From contig JAISQK010000145.1 in NCBI GenBank assembly GCA_031274255.1, positions 1-34,035 of the forward strand: a stretch of 34,035 bases of DNA, read 5' to 3'. The notes below the pieces were generated by a model. The model searched no databases, had not been told where the DNA came from, and saw only the letters and a program-made list of their open reading frames with translations. The DNA comes from Planctomycetaceae bacterium. GTDB taxonomy: Bacteria; Planctomycetota; Planctomycetia; Pirellulales; Thermoguttaceae. Shown here one piece after another: positions 3,404-31,856 of this stretch. Numbering within the stretch: the first letter of the stretch is position 1; each line of letters opens with the position of its first letter. The position numbers and the translations under genes were made by a program.

Positions 3404-3522
3404 TGTTGTTCCGCTCGCGGACTCCAGCGGTCGCGAGCCGCGACGGGGCAACATGCTGTTCCATCGCAGTTGCCTCATGGTCACTGCGTTCCATTCGGCC
3501 TCCGATGGAAAATCTTTCCAAC
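3404..3522 (-). repeat. Mosaic intergenic repeat, copy A
   Basis: This gene-free block begins GTTGTTCCGCTCGCGGACTC, contains GCGAGCCGCGACGGGGCAAC and GCCTCATGGTCACTGCGTTC, and ends with the near-palindrome GGAAAATCTTTCC. Each phrase recurs elsewhere in the window, in either orientation (around 4160-4190, 4460, 17900-17960, 18360-18380, 28900-28945, 30583-30600). The strand is given relative to the GAACGCAGTGACCATGAGGC phrase. It lies 80 bp after the epmA stop and 13 bp before the end of the IS630 relic. No promoter or gene is seen in it. Confidence 0.8.
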
Positions 3523-3534
3523 GAATTCTATACC

Positions 3535-4070
3535 TTATAACGCCATTAATTGCCCCTTTTTAAGTTTTTGGAAATTGAGTTGCATGAGTGTGTCGAGTTC
3601 GGATTGATAATCGGTTTCGACACGGCTCAGACAATCATTGATGCCCGACGTAAAATATTGTAAAGACATTTCTTCTTAACCAATTTCCATAACCGTTCCA
3701 TCCAATTCAAATTCGGGGAATAGCTCGGAAGAAATTGTAACGTGATTCCCAAGTCCTTCGCCAAGCCCTCCACGAGTTTGCAACGTTGATAAAGTGCATT
3801 GTCCAGTACGATTACGATTGGCCGCCCCGCCTATTGCACGGACAATTTTCGCAACATCTCGCATACGGTCGCCGCCGTAATGTCACCGTCGTTCACGACG
3901 ACGGTCCATTGTTCGCTGATCGCGTTGCAGGCTCCCGGAACATTCCAAAGTTTTCGCCCCGAAGGACTGCGAAGGAAAATTCGGGTGAAACACCATAAGT
4001 ACCCAAGAAACGCCGCTTGAACAAAATGGACTCCATCCATGAACAACACCGTCTCGCCCGCTTTTGACCG
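3535..4070 (-). pseudogene. IS630-family transposase remnant (DDE domain with stop and frameshift)
   Basis: Read on the minus strand, this is the catalytic C-terminal part of an IS630/DDE_3 transposase. VLFMDGVHFVQ (first Asp at 4037-4035) is followed by FLGYLWCFTRIFLRSPSGRK and LWNVPGACNAISEQW. An in-frame TAG sits at 3833-3831. After it the same frame resumes with RPIVIVLDNALYQ (second Asp) and FLPSYSPNLNWMERLWK (Glu of the triad). The frame then slips near 3655-3675, in an A-rich stretch, and continues as YFTSGINDCLSRVETDY to a stop at 3537-3535. All three acidic catalytic residues are present, but the stop and the frameshift make it inactive. The N-terminal helix-turn-helix half is absent and is replaced exactly by repeat copy B. 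No inverted-repeat ends were identified. Confidence 0.87.
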
Positions 4071-4081
4071 ATTTCCGCCCC

Positions 4082-4270
4082 CCGGCAACGCACGGGCGTT
4101 GCATCCCGGTAGGCTCCCGGCTTCTTCGAGACGATTGCTTTCCGATGGAAAATCTTTCCAATAGGAGGCCGAATGGAACGTAGTGACCATGAGGCAGCCG
4201 GATGCAACGGCACGCTGCCCGTCCCGAAACAATAACCCGCTTCCGATGGTCGCTAGTATTTGGTGAGCGG
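4082..4270 (+). repeat. Mosaic intergenic repeat, copy B
   Basis: The block starts with a perfect hairpin at 4085-4102 (stem GCAACGC/GCGTTGC, loop ACGG). It continues with the CCGGTAGGCTCCCGGCTTCT module, GGAAAATCTTTCC, and the phrase GAATGGAACGTAGTGACCAT. It then carries the inverse of the phrase CGGGTTATTGTTCGGGAC that is found in copies H and I, and it ends near GTGAGCGGAACAAC. It abuts the truncated 5' side of the IS630 relic. The remaining bases to about 4360 show no recognisable gene. Confidence 0.8.
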
Positions 4271-4364
4271 AACAACGTCTTTTGTGGAGTGATTGGAAGA
4301 AAAGCTATCCGGGTGATCTCAACGTGACTTCATGAACCGTTTCCCGCATAGGACTTATAAAAGA

Positions 4365-4537
4365 TGCCTCCGGCGGGCAGCGGTAGGCCGCTGCACCCCT
4401 GATGGAGCTGCCGCTCCGAGAACCACGAACCCGTTCGCGTTGCTCACTGGAATCCGCGAGCGGAACAACGATTCCAACGGAAGCGGCTGGAAAGATTGTC
4501 CAACGGAAAGCGAACCGAACGCAGTGAGCGTGAACAT
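4365..4537 (+). repeat. Mosaic intergenic repeat, copy C
   Basis: From 4365 to 4469 this is an inverse copy of the 120-bp module seen at 30583-30702. It starts ATGCCTCCGGCGGGC (the element end elsewhere read as GCCCGCCGGAGGCAT) and finishes GCGAGCGGAACAAC. Its central hairpin at 4377-4394 has a perfect 7-bp stem (GCAGCGG/CCGCTGC) with loop TAGG, a different stem sequence from the other copies. A second module follows with GGAAAGATTGTCC and ACCGAACGCAGTGAGCGTGA. It ends about 17 bp beyond the stop codon of the convergent PEP-CTERM gene. Confidence 0.8.
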
Positions 4538-4553
4538 GCCGGCCGTGAACGTA

Positions 4554-17075: not shown

Positions 17076-17873
17076 ATGATCGACAGAGAAGCACGGAATG
17101 AATTATTGCAGATCCTCAATGACGGCATGGACGAAAAAATTTCACCTGAAGAGTTTGCCGCGGTTTTCTTTGGTAAAATTGCCAGAAAAACAAAAGACGA
17201 ACTCATAAGAGCCGTTGATTTGTGGTTTTCCGGCATTTTTATTGATGGTTCCGTTCCTTGTCATCTGCAATCGGATTGTGTCACCTGGAAATTTTTCAAC
17301 CGTATCCGGCTGCTGCTGGAGTCTGACGCGGAATGCAAAACCGAAAAAGCCGGACCACCCCGATCGACCGTCCGACGGATCACAGGAAGAATGATCCTCA
17401 TCACCTTGATTTGCGGATGCGGCTTCACGGTTTCCCACACGCCCGGGATGTTTGGGGACGGCCTTCTTATTTGGGGGATGCTTTGGTATGTTTTATGCGG
17501 CATTTCCCTGTTTATCACGATCCTTTTGAAAAAACGGCCGGAGGAACCGGAACAAAACGGCCTTACGATGGAGTGTTATCCGCTGGAATCCTTTGAGGAA
17601 CTGATGAGGTTACGCCGTTCCGTGCCGGATTTTTGCAGCAAGCGGTTTCCCCGCAAACCGCTGGTGAGAAAACAGAGAAATGCGTTGTTCCGGTTTTTGG
17701 TCGAAACCCAATGTCCGGCATGGGTTGACCGGATCGGTGATGCGTTTATCACCTGGTTTTACATGATGTTGTTTCCCTTTTCTCTACTTTGTCTTTGGCC
17801 GATCGTTGCGGGGATGTTCTTCATCGAATGGAAGGAACGCCGGCTTATTCTTCCTGAAACGAATCAACCGTAA
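17076..17873 (+). CDS. Membrane protein of unknown function
   Basis: A 265-residue protein. The N-terminal 100 residues are soluble and acidic (LLQILNDGMDEKISPEEFAA). Two helices follow at about 105-125 and 130-148 (LWYVLCGISLFITILL), then a soluble loop with Arg and Lys, and a last hydrophobic pair near 225-255 (FYMMLFPFSLLCLWPIVAGM). The first 60 residues, with a helix and EEFAAVFFGKI, resemble those of small regulatory domains, but this is not diagnostic. The start is the ATG at 17076, preceded by AGCAGGAGACATGTCATC. No recognised family. The stop codon is directly followed by mosaic repeat DNA. Confidence 0.65.
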   Translation: MIDREARNELLQILNDGMDEKISPEEFAAVFFGKIARKTKDELIRAVDLWFSGIFIDGSVPCHLQSDCVTWKFFNRIRLLLESDAECKTEKAGPPRSTVRRITGRMILITLICGCGFTVSHTPGMFGDGLLIWGMLWYVLCGISLFITILLKKRPEEPEQNGLTMECYPLESFEELMRLRRSVPDFCSKRFPRKPLVRKQRNALFRFLVETQCPAWVDRIGDAFITWFYMMLFPFSLLCLWPIVAGMFFIEWKERRLILPETNQP

Positions 17874-17877
17874 CAGA

Positions 17878-18125
17878 GTCCGGGTCGCGAGCCACGACGG
17901 CAGCGTGGCACGTTGCACCACAGCCGCCTCATCGTCACTGCGTTCCATTCGGTCTCCGTTGGATACGTTTTTCCGACCAGCGACTAACTGGAGGCAGCAT
18001 GTTGCTGCACCGCAGTATGCCTTCGGCCTCCTATTGGAAAGATTTTCCATCAGAGGGCGAACCGAACGCAATGAGTGTGAGCCTACAGGGATGCAACGCT
18101 CGTGCGTTGTTGCCCGCCGGAGGCA
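17878..18125. repeat. Mosaic intergenic repeat, copy D
   Basis: It begins five bases after the preceding stop codon. It contains GCGAGCCACGACGGCAGCGT, the inverse phrase GTCACTGCGTTCCATTCGG, a hairpin GCAGCA-TGT-TGCTGC near 17996-18010, GGAAAGATTTTCC, ACCGAACGCAATGAGTGTGA, and the CAACGC-loop TCGT-GCGTTG hairpin (18094-18109). It ends with GCCCGCCGGAGGCA, the same end as copies G and H. Both inverted and direct versions of the modules occur within this one block. Confidence 0.8.
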
Positions 18126-18128
18126 AAG

Positions 18129-18254
18129 ATCACTCCTCAAATAAGGATTTACTGTCCTCCAGTCGCTCAATATTGTCCGCCCATTGTTTACTACAGTCCT
18201 CCAATTTCCTTTTGTAGCCCTACAATTCCCTTTTGTTCCGGTGCAATTCCCTAT
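18129..18254. repeat. Degenerate tandem array, 6 units of exactly 21 bp (array 1)
   Basis: Units start at 18129, 18150, 18171, 18192, 18213 and 18234. Examples are TACTGTCCTCCAGTCGCTC.., TATTGTCCGCCCATTGTTT.. and TACAGTCCTCCAATTTCCT... Identity between neighbours is only about half to two-thirds, yet there is no change of phase. No gene covers it. Because 21 is divisible by three it also yields heptapeptide-like translations such as YCPPVAQ-YCPPIVY, without start or ribosome site. Confidence 0.8.
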
Positions 18255-18299
18255 TGCCAAGTGTCTTTTCGTTCTGTTTGGGCGGAAAAAGGCTGCGAT

Positions 18300-18392
18300 T
18301 CCGTCACAACCGACCGCGAGCCGCGGCAAGCGATAGCCTTCCAGTCTCTACGAGACGATCGGTGTCGGTTGGAAAAATCTTTCCAACCGCAA
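18300..18392 (+). repeat. Mosaic intergenic repeat, copy E (short)
   Basis: It contains ACCGCGAGCCGCGGCAAGCG, the hairpin GTCTC-TAC-GAGAC (18344-18356), and GGAAAAATCTTTCC flanked by TTGG/CCAA, giving a longer palindrome. It lies between 21-bp arrays 1 and 2. Confidence 0.75.
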
Positions 18393-18432
18393 AAGGGGTA
18401 CTTTTTCGGAAAAACCAGTACATTTTTTCCCC

Positions 18433-18552
18433 TCGGAAGCCCTGAATCACCACTTGGAACCTCAATATTCTCTCTCGGAAGCTCAATATCCGGCGTTGGA
18501 AGTCCGAAACCGGACATCGGAACCTCAAAATCCGCTCTCGGATGTTCAGAAG
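18433..18552. repeat. Degenerate tandem array, 5.7 units of exactly 21 bp (array 2)
   Basis: Units start at 18433, 18454, 18475, 18496, 18517 and 18538. Each starts with TCGGAAG, TTGGAAC or similar, followed by CTCAATATCC-like sequence. The sequence is unrelated to arrays 1 and 3, but the period is the same. It is non-coding in context. The minus-strand translation is heptads such as GLPTPDI-ELPRENI-EVPSGDS with no start signal. Confidence 0.82.
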
Positions 18553-18554
18553 AA

Positions 18555-18735
18555 ATGCCTCCGGATGGCAGCATAAAGGCCACTGCACTTCATTAGCCTC
18601 CCAGCTTCGCGGTCGGGCAAAGTGACGTTGCTCACTGTTATCAATAGGTGGAAAAATGTTTTCAACGGAAACCGAATGGAACGCAGTGATCATGAGGCAA
18701 GTGCGGTACAGCGTGCCACGCTGCCGCTGCCGGTA
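18555..18735 (+). repeat. Mosaic intergenic repeat, copy F
   Basis: It starts ATGCCTCCGGATGGCAGCAT, the inverse of the GCCGGAGGCA end of copy D, so 18126-18554 is framed by two oppositely oriented ends. It also contains GTGACGTTGCTCACTG, a worn GGAAAAATGTTTTC, and CCGAATGGAACGCAGTGATC followed by ATGAGGC, then GCGTGCCACGCTGCCG. AT-rich promoter DNA of the next gene follows. Confidence 0.8.
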
Positions 18736-18910: not shown

Positions 18911-19924
18911 ATGGGAAGACCTGTCACTCTCTGCTCCGGTCAATGGGCAGACTTGAAACTTGAAAATCTTGTGGACAAAGTCGTGGATTTCGGCTACGAC
19001 GGCATTGAACTGGCCTGTTGGGGCGACCATTTTGAGGTCGAAAAAGCCCTGTCGCAAGACGATTACTGTGCTAAAAAATGGGATTTACTGAAATCCAAAG
19101 GGCTTCAGTGTTACGCGATCAGCAACCACATTGTCGGTCAGGGAATCTGCGATGTTATTGACGAACGCCACAAATCCATTCTGACGGAGGCTCTCTGGGG
19201 CGACGGCAACCCCGCAGGGGTCAACCAGCGTTGTGCCGACGCCATGAAAGATGCCGCCCGTGCCGCTCAAAAACTCGGCGTCAAGGTGGTCAACGGGTTC
19301 ACCGGCTCCAGCATTTGGCAGTATTTTTATTCCTACCCGCCGGTTCCGCCGAGTTGGATCAAAGACGGCTTCAAACTCTTCGCCGACCGCTTTCATCCGA
19401 TTCTTGACGTCTTCGGAGAATGCGGCGTGAAATTCGCTCTTGAAGTTCACCCGACCGAAATCGCCTACGACCTTTACACGGCGGAAATGGCTCTCGACGC
19501 GATCGGCTGGCGTGAAGAATTCGGCTTCAACTTCGATCCGAGTCACCTGGAATGGCAAGGGGTCGATTCGGTGCAGTTCATCCGCCGGTTCGGAGAACGT
19601 ATCCATCATGTTCACATCAAAGACGCCATTGTGACTCTCGACGGCACTCAGGGAATTCTGGCAAGTCACATCAACTTCGGCGATTACCGCCGCGGCTGGC
19701 AGTTCCGTTCGCCGGGACATGGTTCCGTCAACTTCGAGGAAATCATCCGCGCACTGAACGATGTCGGATACAAAGGACCGCTTTCCGTCGAATGGGAAGA
19801 TTCCGGTATGGAACGTGAAGCCGGTGCCAGGGAATCGTGCCAGCTCGTCCGTAAATGGGATTTTCCCCCCAGTGATTTTGCGTTCGACTCCGCATTCGAC
19901 ACCTCCGCCCAGCAGCAAGGGTAA
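18911..19924 (+). CDS. Sugar phosphate isomerase/epimerase (xylose isomerase-like TIM barrel)
   Basis: A 337-residue protein of the AP-endonuclease-2/xylose-isomerase TIM-barrel superfamily. Probable metal ligands are in the usual places: E178 ([10 protein letters not shown]), D209 and H212 ([10 protein letters not shown]), H235 (HHVHIKDA) and E284 ([10 protein letters not shown]). Such enzymes interconvert keto and aldo or epimeric sugars or inositols with Mn or Mg. There is no signal peptide, so it is cytoplasmic. The exact substrate is not readable from the sequence. The close resemblance of the ends ([17 protein letters not shown], and the [15 protein letters not shown] tail) to inositol- or keto-sugar-type paralogs common in planctomycetes is from memory. 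It stands alone, with its own promoter. No sugar-kinase or dehydrogenase genes are next to it. Confidence 0.85.
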
Positions 19925-26630: not shown

Positions 26631-27629
26631 ATGCGGTTTCCCTTTTGTTTACGGGCCACTTTACCGGCCGCTTTACCGGCAGCGGTTTTTTGTCTGATTC
26701 CATGGTTCCTCCCCGCCGAAGAGGAAGTGCTTTACCAACCGGACGAACCGGCCGCGGCGGTTTTTCCTCTCTGGCCCGGTACGGCTCCCGGCGAAAAGGG
26801 AAATCCCGGGGAAGAGAAAGGAATCACGACCAACATTCTTCGGATTGAAAACGTCACGGTTCCCACGCTGACCGTTTACAAGCCCCGCCAGGCCGAAGGT
26901 AAAATCAAAGACACCGGCGCTTGCGTGATGGTTTGCCCCGGCGGCGGATACAACATCCTCGCTTATGATTATGAGGGAACGGAAATCGCCGGTTATTTCA
27001 ATTCTATCGGAGTCACGGCGGCGGTGCTGAAATACCGCGTGCCGCGGCGTGAAGGTCTTCCCAAACATCTTCCCGCTCTTCAGGACGCTCAGCGGGGAAT
27101 CCGGATTTTGCGGGCCCGCGCGGAGGAATGGGGAGTGGACCCGAACCGTATCGGCGTCCTCGGATTTTCCGCCGGAGGACATCTCACCATGATGACGGCC
27201 GTCCATTTCGATCAAAAGACCTATGAACCGGTTGATGCCGCGGACCGAATCAGTGCCAGACCCGATTTTGTCATGCCGATCTATCCGGCGTACATGATGG
27301 AGAATGAGAAGGAGTTTCGGGCCGGCGTGCCGCTTGCCGGCGAGGTGACAATCCGCAAGGACATGCCGCCGGTGTTCCTTTCCGTCACCGATGATGATGA
27401 AAACCGTGCCGCCGCCGGGGCCCGGGTTTACATTGCCATGAAAGAGGCGGGTGTTCCGTGCGAGCTTCACATTTTTGCCAAAGGAGGTCACGGCTACGCG
27501 CTCCGCAAGGGACGCGGTCCGGCGGCCGGTTGGGACAGACTCCTGACCGACTGGCTCCTGACCGGCGGAATCCTCAAACAGGAAACAAACGCCCCTCCTC
27601 TGCCGGAAAGCCGTCCCCCCTTGGAGTAA
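26631..27629 (+). CDS. Secreted alpha/beta hydrolase (esterase/lipase-type)
   Basis: A 332-residue protein whose first 28 residues are a Sec signal peptide (MRFPFCLRATLPAALPAAVF, cleavage near LPAEE). The fold is a typical esterase. The oxyanion loop is PGGGY (103-107). The nucleophile S170 is in GFSAGGH. Probable acid residues are at D254-D256 (VTDDDE), and H287 is in AKGGHGYAL. It resembles planctomycete xylan or carbohydrate esterases and polyester-type hydrolases (prolyl oligopeptidase/BD-FAE-like, DUF-type) that remove acetyl or feruloyl groups. The actual substrate is not determined by these motifs. The start at 26631 has CAAGGAGATTTTT upstream, the best site in the frame. The gene ends inside the first unit of the 21-bp palindromic array. 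Confidence 0.87.
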   Translation: MRFPFCLRATLPAALPAAVFCLIPWFLPAEEEVLYQPDEPAAAVFPLWPGTAPGEKGNPGEEKGITTNILRIENVTVPTLTVYKPRQAEGKIKDTGACVMVCPGGGYNILAYDYEGTEIAGYFNSIGVTAAVLKYRVPRREGLPKHLPALQDAQRGIRILRARAEEWGVDPNRIGVLGFSAGGHLTMMTAVHFDQKTYEPVDAADRISARPDFVMPIYPAYMMENEKEFRAGVPLAGEVTIRKDMPPVFLSVTDDDENRAAAGARVYIAMKEAGVPCELHIFAKGGHGYALRKGRGPAAGWDRLLTDWLLTGGILKQETNAPPLPESRPPLE

Positions 27630-27842
27630 GACTTTCCCCCCCGGGAGTGAGGTTTCCACTCCTCGGAGTGAGACTTCCGCTCCCGGGAGTAGGACTTTCA
27701 CTCCGAGGAGCGAGACTTCCACTCCCGGGAGTAGAACTTTCTCTCCCGGGAGCGAGGTTTCCACTCCCGGGAGTAAGGCTTCCGCCCCCGGGAGTGAGGC
27801 TTTCCCTCCCGGGAGCGAGACTGTCCCTCCTCAGGAGAGAAA
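27621..27842. repeat. Tandem array, 10 units of exactly 21 bp with a palindromic core (array 3)
   Basis: Ten consecutive units start at 27621, 27642, 27663, 27684, 27705, 27726, 27747, 27768, 27789 and 27810, plus a partial eleventh. The consensus is CGGGAGTGAGGYTTCCACTC plus C. Across each unit junction sits the palindrome CTCCCGGGAG or a version CTCC-NN-GGAG, where only the central two bases change (CG, TC, GA). Alternatively GGAGT pairs with ACTCC within a unit, around a loop of nine. The array begins with the stop codon of the esterase, extends into the leader of the ABC gene, and encodes nothing with a ribosome site. Confidence 0.92.
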
Positions 27843-28693: not shown

Positions 28694-29229
28694 TTCCTTC
28701 TGTGCCGGAGGGCCGCGACGCCGCGGCAGGCGGCAACGCGAGGGCGTTGCATCCCGGTAGGCTCCCGGTCTCTTCGAGACGGTCGCTCTCCAATAGAAAA
28801 TCTTTCCACTGGAGGCCGAAGGCTACTGCGGTGAAGCAGCATGCTTCCCGCTCCGAAAGCCACAAACCCGCTCTCGTTGCTCGCTGGAATCCACCGGTTG
28901 AACAACGCATCTAACGGAGGCCGAATGGAACGCAGTGACCATGAGGCTACTGCGATGGAACAGCATGTTCCCCCGCTCCCGCTGGGAAGCGTGCCGCTTT
29001 TCGTCGCACATCGCAAGCGGTTGGAAAGACGATCCATTGGAAGCGAACCGAACGAAGTGAGTGTGAGCCTACCGGGATCCAACGCCCTTGCGTTGGCCGC
29101 CGGAGGCATTTCTTGTTATTCTTTTCCCGTTGTTCCGCTCACCGCTTCCCAGCGACTAACAGGAGCGGGTTCGTGGCTCTCGGAGCGGCGGGATCCAACG
29201 CCCTCGCGTTGGCCGTTGCGGCGTTGCTT
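28694..29229. repeat. Mosaic intergenic repeat, copy G (longest block)
   Basis: This 536-bp gene-free block lies between two converging genes and is composed of at least three joined sub-blocks. Perfect hairpins: 28733-28750 (GCAACGC/GCGTTGC, loop GAGG), 28768-28780 (GTCTC/GAGAC, loop TTC), 29079-29096 (CCAACGC/GCGTTGG, loop CCTT) and 29195-29212 (CCAACGC/GCGTTGG, loop CCTC). It also holds AGAAAATCTTTCC, GAATGGAACGCAGTGACCAT, GCCGGAGGCATTTC and GTTGTTCCGCTCACC. It ends at the nspC stop codon. Confidence 0.85.
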
Positions 29230-30469: not shown

Positions 30470-30702
30470 CGGCCGGGCAACATGCAGACGTTGCCGCCCG
30501 GTATGCTCACGGCCTCTTTGAGGCGGTCGCTTTCAATAGATAATGTTTCCCGCCGCTTTTCTTTTGTTCCGGCAGTATTCCCGTTGTTCCGCTCGCGGAC
30601 TCCAGTGAGCAACGCGGGTTATTGTTCGGGACGGCAGTCCCCTCCGGGATGCAACGCCCGTGCGTTGCCGCCCGCCGCGGCGTCGCGGCCCGCCGGAGGC
30701 AT
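30470..30702 (+). repeat. Mosaic intergenic repeat, copy H
   Basis: Part 1 (30470-30555) carries the hairpin GCCTC-TTT-GAGGC (30512-30524) and a worn GGAAAATCTTTCC counterpart. Part 2 is a complete 120-bp module, 30583-30702, starting GTTGTTCCGCTCGCGGACTC and ending GCCCGCCGGAGGCAT. Inside it is the hairpin GCAACGC-CCGT-GCGTTGC (30651-30668). 54 bases (30615-30668) recur identically in copy I. The following bases to about 30867 contain no gene that I can support. Confidence 0.85.
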
Positions 30703-30867
30703 CCTTTTATAAATCTATGCCATCAACGGTTCATAAGGTCATGTTGTTGGGATAACTCTGAGTGTTTTCACTGGACGTTAAAAGGAGATGAGGGAAACTT
30801 TTGGTATTGATAAGATACCGCACAAAATCCCGACCGGGAAGTCCCGGCGTCAACGTAACACATTGGA

Positions 30868-31044
30868 TCGCAATCGCGAGCCGCGACAGGCAGTATGCCT
30901 TCCGGCTGCGCGGTCGGCTTCCGATGGACAATCTTTCCAGCCGCTTGCGATATGCGGTGAAACGGCACGCTTCCCAGCGACCAACGGAAACGGGTTATTG
31001 TTCGGGACGGCAGTCCCCTCCGGGATGCAACGCCCGTGCGTTGC
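30868..31044 (+). repeat. Mosaic intergenic repeat, copy I
   Basis: It contains AATCGCGAGCCGCGACAGGC, GGACAATCTTTCC, AACGGCACGCTTCCC and the identical 54-bp segment 30991-31044, whose final hairpin is GCAACGC-CCGT-GCGTTGC (31027-31044). The last repeat base is the first base of the stop codon of the convergent SPFH gene, so the element joins the coding sequence with no spacer. Confidence 0.85.
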
Positions 31045-31856
31045 TATCGGATGGGTAAAAGGACGGGGATATTATTGGTCTCGGAACCCTGCAGCACAAC
31101 CGTCTGCGGAGCCTTGCCATCCCACTTTTTAATGACCTCAAGCTGGGCGACATTGGGACTCTCCTGCAACGCCTGGCCGCGGACGCGGATCGCTTCGGCT
31201 TCTCCCTTGGCGGTTTCGATGGCCTGCTCCGCCTCGATTTTCGCCTTTTTCAATTCGTTTTCCGCACGCAGACTGTCCTGCAATGCAACCTGTTTACGCT
31301 CAATGGCCTGCTCGTACTCGTCGCTGAAATCGAAGTTGGAAATGACAATATCCCGGATATCGACGATTTCATGAAGCCGCTCCTGACACGCTTTGAACAC
31401 CTCGTCACGCAGCTTCTCGCGGTTTTCGACCAGCTTTTCCGCCTCGTATTTCGCGAGATGCTGCTTGAGAATCTCAAACACCCGCGGCTTGACCTGCTCA
31501 AGATACTGCATGCCGATGTTCTCGTACACCGCCACGGCGTTTTGCGGCGTGAGTACGGTGAGGATGGTGATGTCGGCCTCGACAAGCTGAAGGTCCTGAC
31601 TGTAACATTGCGTTTTCTCCTCGGTACGCAAGATGCGGCAGTCGATGGAGACCACCTTCCGCCACGGCCAAATCAGATGCAGTCCCGGATCAAGCGTGTC
31701 GCCGACAATTTTGCCGAACGACGTGACAATTCCGATATGCCCGACGTCCACCGTGCGGACGCTCATCAGTAAAGCCGCAATCACCAGCACCGCCGTAATG
31801 GTTCCCGCCGCCGCGGCTGCCGGCGGAACATTGTTTGATTTCATATTTTTCGCCAT
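31044..31856 (-). CDS. SPFH/Band-7 (prohibitin-like) membrane protein
   Basis: A 270-residue protein with one N-terminal membrane anchor (about 14-33, ITAVLVIAALLMSV). The prohibitin-type SPFH domain follows: VDVGHIGIVTSFGKIVGDTL at its start, then FSDEYEQAIERKQVALQDSL, and a coiled coil rich in Ala, Glu and Lys (ENELKKAKIEAEQAIETAKG). Such proteins form large ring- or cage-like assemblies that organise membranes and control proteases such as FtsH. The start is the ATG at 31856 with AGGAG eight bases upstream, not the longer upstream frame, which overlaps the nadE 3' end. The end, VLLPIR, lacks the longer tail of HflK and HflC. It lies 137 bp after nadE on the same strand. The stop codon is at the end of repeat copy I. 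Confidence 0.88.
   Translation of the reverse strand: MAKNMKSNNVPPAAAAAGTITAVLVIAALLMSVRTVDVGHIGIVTSFGKIVGDTLDPGLHLIWPWRKVVSIDCRILRTEEKTQCYSQDLQLVEADITILTVLTPQNAVAVYENIGMQYLEQVKPRVFEILKQHLAKYEAEKLVENREKLRDEVFKACQERLHEIVDIRDIVISNFDFSDEYEQAIERKQVALQDSLRAENELKKAKIEAEQAIETAKGEAEAIRVRGQALQESPNVAQLEVIKKWDGKAPQTVVLQGSETNNIPVLLPIR

What the first reader, a model, noticed from the sequence alone, without database searches (positions are those of the whole stretch)
18126..18554. Arrays 1 and 2 sit between oppositely oriented ends of the mosaic repeat
Copy D ends GCCGGAGGCA at 18125 and copy F begins ATGCCTCCGG at 18555, so the two 21-bp arrays and copy E are framed by inverted element ends 430 bp apart. 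This is the geometry of a non-autonomous mobile unit, with the arrays as cargo.
Basis: inference. Interest (0 to 1): 0.55.

Follow-up and report, generated by a model that had tools for sequence, protein, structure and literature searches.

The report
Hairpin-capped arrays of 21-base palindromes
An uncultured planctomycete carries dozens of spacer-DNA elements in which opposite copies of a palindromic repeat cap a stack of 21-base palindromes that seems to change by whole units, a layout like the pneumococcal BOX repeat but with a strict 21-base ruler whose purpose is unknown.

Summary
In detail: GCCGGAGGCA ends at 18125, ATGCCTCCGG starts at 18555, and both arrays lie between them. It recurs. 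The motif between the arrays (Y) has 29 copies in this genome; inward-facing ends occur left in 17, right in 20 and on both sides in 13 of 29 (about 0.2 expected on the left). The same ends frame a second, different interior.

The reading as a mobile unit with arrays as cargo is partly supported. The end repeat (at least 150 hits) was not found in 19 relatives. The array class occurs in a congener without these ends and uncapped at 27623-27830 here, so ends and arrays have separate histories. No empty site or matching transposase was found; copies are old (best pair 86% identical); cap phylogeny does not track interior type.

New: the framed DNA is a lattice of 21-bp dyad units counted from the end repeat's inner tip. 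11 of 16 type II interiors are exact multiples of 21 (12 of 19 with three more); right-end offsets share one residue in 16 of 21. Copy E is a nested half unit seen in 3 of 29. Closest kinds: BOX, REPIN/BIME.

The parts
17898..17974 (-). outer arm, half unit of the palindromic repeat (M1 family), inverted relative to 18650-18726
   Evidence: 77-nt inverted repeat, 84% complementary; M1 HMM hit on - strand 17898-18005
   Evidence: M1 HMM 128.5 bits; covariance model hit 17992-18125; the tip is a sharp boundary in most of the 61 distinct M1 hits listed
18126..18167 (+). X: first two 21-bp lattice units, conserved in type I elements
   Evidence: X HMM hits at the same place in other copies; 21-mer layout
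18168..18272 (+). array 1 (R1) and its degenerate units; 14-bp palindrome plus 7 bp per unit
   Evidence: TRF 18198-18256; covariation of unit arms; lattice
18273..18314 (+). Y: most conserved interior motif (CTGTTTGGGCGGAAAAAGGC...)
   Evidence: 29 copies in own genome, control 0
18303..18392 (-).
   Evidence: internal M1 HMM hit in L115, L116, L119 only; Z-free junction in L117, L118, L121, L130
18435..18548 (+). array 2 (R2), 21-bp units
   Evidence: TRF 18456-18542; R2 HMM hits at other loci
   Evidence: M1 HMM - strand, 37 bits; inverted repeat with 17898-17974
27623..27830 (.). uncapped array of 21-bp palindromic units (GGGAGTGAGGTTTCCACTCCC type), not framed by M1
   Evidence: TRF; 894-909 bp from the nearest M1; 50 of 63 symmetric positions complementary at the best of 42 axes, no shuffle control

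Best explanation
The segment is one copy of a composite, apparently non-coding intergenic repeat family. Two inward-facing copies of a species-specific ~130-bp palindromic repeat (M1) cap an interior made of 21-bp dyad-symmetric units. Interior lengths differ between copies mostly by whole 21-bp units, so caps and units stay in one register (shown). Caps and arrays have separate origins: the array class is shared with a congener in which M1 was not found (shown); the caps were joined to it in this lineage (inferred). The capped elements then multiplied in the genome as old, non-autonomous elements, in the manner of BOX elements, either moved in trans by an unidentified enzyme or copied by recombination (inferred). 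The 21-bp register most likely persists because the symmetric sites must stay on one face of the DNA (two helical turns) for a protein or a folded strand (inferred). Copy E is a later nested insertion (inferred from the copies without it).
For: 29 Y copies, control 0. Inward ends left 17, right 20, both 13 of 29. 38 inward-facing M1 pairs in the fetched DNA after removal of duplicates. Type II interiors: 11 of 16 exact multiples of 21 bp (p about 1e-11 if independent), 12 of 19 with three more. Y-to-right-end offsets: 16 of 21 matches on residue 6; over distinct lengths, without L108, 7 of 11 (p about 3e-6). Type I framed lengths: 10 of 12 on residues 8-10. Self-identity at lag 21 is 0.44 (type I) and 0.41 (type II) against 0.26 in control DNA. 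In 11 in-register type II interiors the dyad axis falls on the middle base of each 21-mer counted from the M1 tip, z 4.2; best z in control DNA 1.7. M1 hairpins: covariation score 0.285 vs 0.145 shuffled. R1 units: 58 of 108 inner pairs vs 35.9 shuffled. Congener has the arrays without M1.
Against: No target duplication, empty site, excision or matching transposase was found. Copies are at most 86% identical, so any movement is old. A tree of 54 caps does not separate the classes (three labels 22 changes vs 24.1 shuffled, 94 of 500; left-I vs right-I 9 vs 9.6, 201 of 500; I vs II 13 vs 15.9, 33 of 500), which argues against clean inheritance of cap plus interior. Only 13 of 29 copies have both ends by the strict motif. 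In one search two of five measures do not exceed shuffles (pairs with changes on both sides 5 vs 4.3, 231 of 500; further pair types 11 vs 12.3, 497 of 500). Off register: 2 of 12 type I and 5 of 16 type II interiors. Related copies are not independent, so the p values are rough. The helical-phase reading is untested.
Confidence: 0.6

Rival explanations
1. A REPIN/BIME: M1 is a REP-type repeat moved as inverted doublets by a RAYT (Y1 transposase), with the arrays as spacer.
For: Inverted doublets around a spacer, species-restricted, strong hairpins. In 24 of the 36 aligned copies, counted by eye, the reverse strand reads GTAG before a hairpin, like GTAG-tagged REPs (PMC3733652, passages).
Against: The only Y1_Tnp found in the 87%-complete assembly is flanked by a different palindrome and shows no match to the repeat.
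Confidence: 0.15
2. The array interior is the mobile or targeted part: arrays enter the tip of a pre-existing M1-M1 long palindrome.
For: The sharp conserved boundary is the inner tip, and several unrelated interiors sit at that point.
Against: No M1-M1 palindrome with 0-25 bp between exact 9-base tips was found in the genome, although an empty form would be expected; degenerate tips were not searched.
Confidence: 0.12
3. Independent neighbours: arrays and M1 both pile up in intergenic DNA and the frame is coincidence.
For: Arrays exist without M1 in the congener and at 27623-27830; M1 exists without arrays; wrong-facing tips also occur near Y in 9 and 8 of 29 copies.
Against: Inward ends at 17 and 20 of 29 Y copies against 0.195 expected on the left, and a 21-bp register between tips and units.
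Confidence: 0.03
4. A coding relic: 21 bp = 7 codons, so the register reflects a heptad-repeat protein.
For: 21 is a multiple of 3; some frames are open across parts of the interior.
Against: Over 165 bp around Y no frame is open in more than 17 of 29 copies; hairpin covariation points to nucleic-acid structure.
Confidence: 0.04

Closest known systems
BOX elements of Streptococcus pneumoniae / S. suis (boxA-boxB(n)-boxC)
   Same: Composite repeat with end modules around a variable number of tandem internal modules, base-paired structure, dormant-looking, nested with other repeats; in S. suis the same boxB modules occur between two different pairs of end modules (PMC3049150, passages).
   Different: Here the ends are inverted copies of one palindromic unit, the internal unit is a 21-bp dyad instead of boxB, array sequence varies from copy to copy at constant period, and no sequence relation was tested or is claimed.
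REPINs / BIMEs (RAYT-linked)
   Same: Inverted palindromic doublets around a spacer, species-restricted (PMC3116915, abstract and passages; PMC3733652, passages).
   Different: Unit ~130 bp, framed interiors of 84-798 bp with internal arrays, and no cognate RAYT found.
Neisserial intergenic mosaic elements and Correia elements
   Same: Composite intergenic repeats; Correia elements have inverted ends (as described in PMC3049150, passage; NIME papers seen only as a search listing).
   Different: No 21-bp dyad lattice is described in the passages seen; no sequence comparison made.
MITEs
   Same: Non-autonomous, inverted ends, strong folding (features as listed in PMC3049150, passage).
   Different: No TSD and no parent transposase shown; the conserved boundary is the inner, not the outer, end.

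Membership tests
BOX-like composite repeat | two end modules flanking a variable number of tandem internal modules | tested here: met
   distance from left tip to Y runs from 42 to 336 bp in the 17 copies with a left end; unit number varies; both ends present in 13 of 29
BOX-like composite repeat | sequence homology to boxA, boxB or boxC | not tested
   no BOX sequence was compared
REPIN / BIME | inverted doublet of a species-restricted palindromic repeat | tested here: met
   38 inward pairs; 0 of 19 relatives have the repeat
REPIN / BIME | cognate RAYT flanked by the same repeat | tested here: not met
   1 Y1_Tnp in own genome, flanks without M1; assembly 87% complete
MITE | conserved outer terminal inverted repeats | tested here: inconclusive
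   77-bp outer arms in the window, but outer limits differ between loci when read by eye
MITE | target site duplication / empty site | tested here: inconclusive
   no shared two-sided synteny at three loci; no exact empty palindrome
Described RNA family | match to a curated Rfam model | tested here: not met
   0 matches at gathering threshold in the whole window

The most novel reading that the evidence does not exclude
A kind of chromosomal element defined by geometry instead of sequence: stacks of 21-bp palindromes whose sequence turns over freely while the units and the two hairpin caps are held at exact multiples of two helical turns, maintained as a phased array for a dimeric DNA-binding protein or a folded strand.
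Probability: 0.3. Interest if true: 0.78.

Novelty: new variant of a known kind. Interest (0 to 1): 0.58.

Why it matters
It gives a repeat family in which the ruler (21 bp) is conserved and the letters are not, with caps that fall on unit boundaries. That turns a vague question (what keeps intergenic palindromic repeats in bacteria?) into testable ones: which protein or process reads a two-turn spacing, and do caps and arrays move together? It also shows that a frame of inverted ends around arrays can be secondary, because the array class exists without these ends in a congener.

Tried and rejected
RAYT link: searched Y1_Tnp, read the flanks of the own copy and of seven congener copies: other palindromes or none recognised as M1; rejected for this assembly. 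Coding: no frame open in all copies. Chance frame: rejected. Rfam: no hit.

Empty sites: tried at the window locus, at C51 (pdxA neighbour) and at C87 (queA neighbour); where congeners had a match they kept one neighbour only, so no empty site could be read. Uninterrupted M1 palindrome: none with exact tips; degenerate tips were not searched.

Cap-interior co-inheritance: the cap tree gives no significant association. One hairpin variant is more common on right caps (7 of 11) than left caps (7 of 24), p 0.07, and than type II caps (2 of 19), p 0.004; 86 further caps were left unclassified: weak and mixed.

Homology of the Y motif with the GGACGGGAAAAAACCG motif beside congener arrays: suggestive by eye, but the Y model finds nothing in the G001 loci at E <= 1, so not claimed.

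Rows left out: in the left-end count I kept 15 of 20 motif matches (<=1 mismatch; 10 of 15 on residue 10, 10 of 20 if all are kept). In the right-end p value I left out one of 21 matches (L108, off register); the count in the text is 16 of 21. The 16 type II interiors were chosen by eye by their end sequences, not by length; the script's own label caught only one of them. Three more that one search missed or mis-cut but one search lists (L015, on register at 462; L023 3588-3681 and L252 2257-2349, off register) make it 12 of 19. Framed pairs of mixed or unclear interior (for example L239, L243, L042) were not counted in either type. One search's fuzzy search called copy E in 5 copies; L109 and L130 were rejected because neither has the internal M1 hit and L130 shows the E-free junction. 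A shortest-distance artefact (7 bp)'s right-end column was ignored in favour. The control on M1-internal spacing showed that spacing to be fairly constant too (73-76 bp in 64 of 87), so it is no contrast to the lattice. One search stopped with an error at its third scan; its first two scans stand, the uncapped array was redone without shuffles, and the control DNA scan was run.

Literature: nine searches. Those for 21-bp palindromic or tandem arrays returned no paper and the planctomycete searches nothing on such arrays in their listings. They were narrow, and the library holds only open-licence papers, so novelty in print is not established.

Full report
What was checked. Both arrays are confirmed by TRF. 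The stretch lies between a + strand ORF ending at 17873 (no Pfam match) and a + strand xylose-isomerase-like TIM-barrel gene starting at 18911.

The family. A search of the own genome (3.76 Mb, 377 contigs, 87% complete) with 17900-18700 gave 117 matches. Iterated HMM searches on fetched stretches resolved a palindromic unit, M1 (136 positions), with an inner tip CGCCGGAGGCA that is a sharp boundary in most of 61 distinct hits. A covariance model of 36 copies finds at least 150 hits in the genome (150 candidates were scored, so this is a floor) and none in 19 relatives, three of them congeners; the window DNA itself also gives none in 19 relatives. The clade is planctomycete, near Pirellulales, by its named relatives.

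The frame recurs. The motif between the arrays, Y, occurs 29 times (control 0); an exact degenerate pattern of it is absent from the genome-contig collection (which may leave out the own genome). HMM annotation of the 29 loci shows the order M1 > X, array 1, Y, array 2 < M1, complete or in part, in many of them. By the strict motif, 17 of 29 have the left tip, 20 of 29 the right tip and 13 of 29 both, against 0.195 expected on the left from shuffled flanks; wrong-facing tips occur at 9 and 8 of 29. Several copies are cut by contig ends. In all, 38 inward-facing M1 pairs up to 800 bp apart were found in the fetched DNA.

Same ends, other content. Inside the same frame the array differs between copies: TTGTAGCCCTACAA-type units (window), TTGGAGTGCTCCAA-type (L026/L124, L133), TTGGTGATCACCAT-type (L013/L115); L108/L019, L111 and L112 have the last type with a differing left junction. 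A second interior, type II, starts like TCCCCTTAATGTCCT... and ends with a reverse of that (for example L046 3154-3699), and is framed by the same tips.

A 21-bp lattice. Of 16 type II interiors, 11 have lengths that are exact multiples of 21 (84, 84, 126, 147, 252, 420, 441, 546, 630, 651, 798; p about 1e-11 if independent); with three more that one search missed or mis-cut it is 12 of 19. Of 12 fully framed type I interiors, residues modulo 21 are 9 (six), 10 (three), 8 (one) and 17 (two). From Y to the right tip, 16 of 21 matches lie on residue 6, with seven distinct lengths, including the three copies that carry copy E. Self-identity at lag 21 is 0.442 in type I and 0.408 in type II, 0.352 in the 12 type II members left after removing four with obvious arrays, and 0.263 in control DNA. 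In 11 in-register type II interiors the one strong dyad axis is the middle base of each 21-mer counted from the M1 tip (494 complementary cells, 426 expected, shuffle maximum 471; z 4.2), so the tip is a unit boundary; in nine type I interiors the axis is offset (7.5; z 4.2). Control DNA gives at most z 1.7. These shuffles ignore relatedness of units.

Structure. The whole 861-nt composite folds far better than dinucleotide shuffles (z -11.3 on +, -16.1 on -; 20 shuffles each). For the M1 hairpins that I named, the covariation score is 0.285 vs 0.145 shuffled, 52 cells are changed on both sides (21.1 shuffled), and 90.6% of cells are paired against at most 67.9% in slid controls; two further measures do not exceed shuffles. 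Inner pairs of 27 distinct array units are complementary in 58 of 108 cells against 35.9 shuffled, maximum 53 in 5000.

Separate origins. The pattern of two successive palindromic units 21 bp apart has 64 matches in the own genome, 74 in congener G001, 0 in G002 and G003 and 0 in all controls. The array HMM matches G001 (best E 3.3e-5) while M1 has no hit at E <= 1 in 55 kb of G001 loci and none in the whole-genome searches. In three of five G001 array loci no inverted pair of 16 nt or more frames the array (L280, L282, L284); for L279 and L281 only the five longest pairs were shown. Other 21-bp arrays occur in G001 and G003. More distant relatives show no such excess in the stretches held: 1 of 19 and 5 of 61 TRF rows have period 21, none above 2.6 copies. 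In the window itself 27623-27830 is an uncapped array. In the fetched own-genome DNA 98 of 139 TRF rows have period 21, 42, 63 or 84 (overlapping loci are counted more than once, and loci were chosen for M1 or Y).

Mobility. Pairs of type I composites share up to 494 aligned columns at up to 86% identity, running through the interior into the caps: old copies. Congener synteny is lost, so no empty site could be read. No exact uninterrupted M1-M1 palindrome was found. The only Y1 transposase found in the assembly carries other palindromes. A tree of 54 caps does not group them by interior or side beyond shuffles, so caps may be exchanged between copies. Copy E is not seen in 26 of 29 copies, a few of them truncated, and the E-free junction can be read in L117, L118, L121 and L130.

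Conclusion. The frame is real and defines a family. The parts have different histories: the array class is shared with a congener, the caps were found in this species only. The best-supported model is a BOX-like composite repeat with hairpin caps and a 21-bp dyad interior that changes by whole units. Spread as a unit and helical phasing are inferred. The paper comparisons rest on passages (PMC3049150; PMC3733652; PMC3116915).

Noticed in passing
27623-27830: Uncapped array of about ten 21-bp units of the GGGAGTGAGGTTTCCACTCCC type, near the end of one + strand ORF and before another; resembles units inside type II interiors of L046 and L020.
   Followed up: partly
window 3421-4545, 28724-29108, 30475-31046: Three further M1 mosaic clusters in the window.
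   Followed up: no
L099 (contig C344), 2300-3250 in reverse-complement coordinates: The only Y1 transposase found in the assembly, flanked by its own palindrome (CTGCCCTTACAGGGCAG), with no match to M1.
   Followed up: partly
L078 1-290, L106 572-1016, L101 4491-4739: Congeners G001 and G003 carry long 21-bp arrays with other unit sequences.
   Followed up: partly
L079 3211-3293, L103 4419-4551: Heptanucleotide (7-bp and 14-bp) tandem repeats in congener G003; 21 is three times 7.
   Followed up: no
L021, L037, L043: ORFs with a DUF1559 (SBP_bac_10) match lie next to mosaic clusters: 3 of the 10 neighbouring proteins scanned.
   Followed up: no
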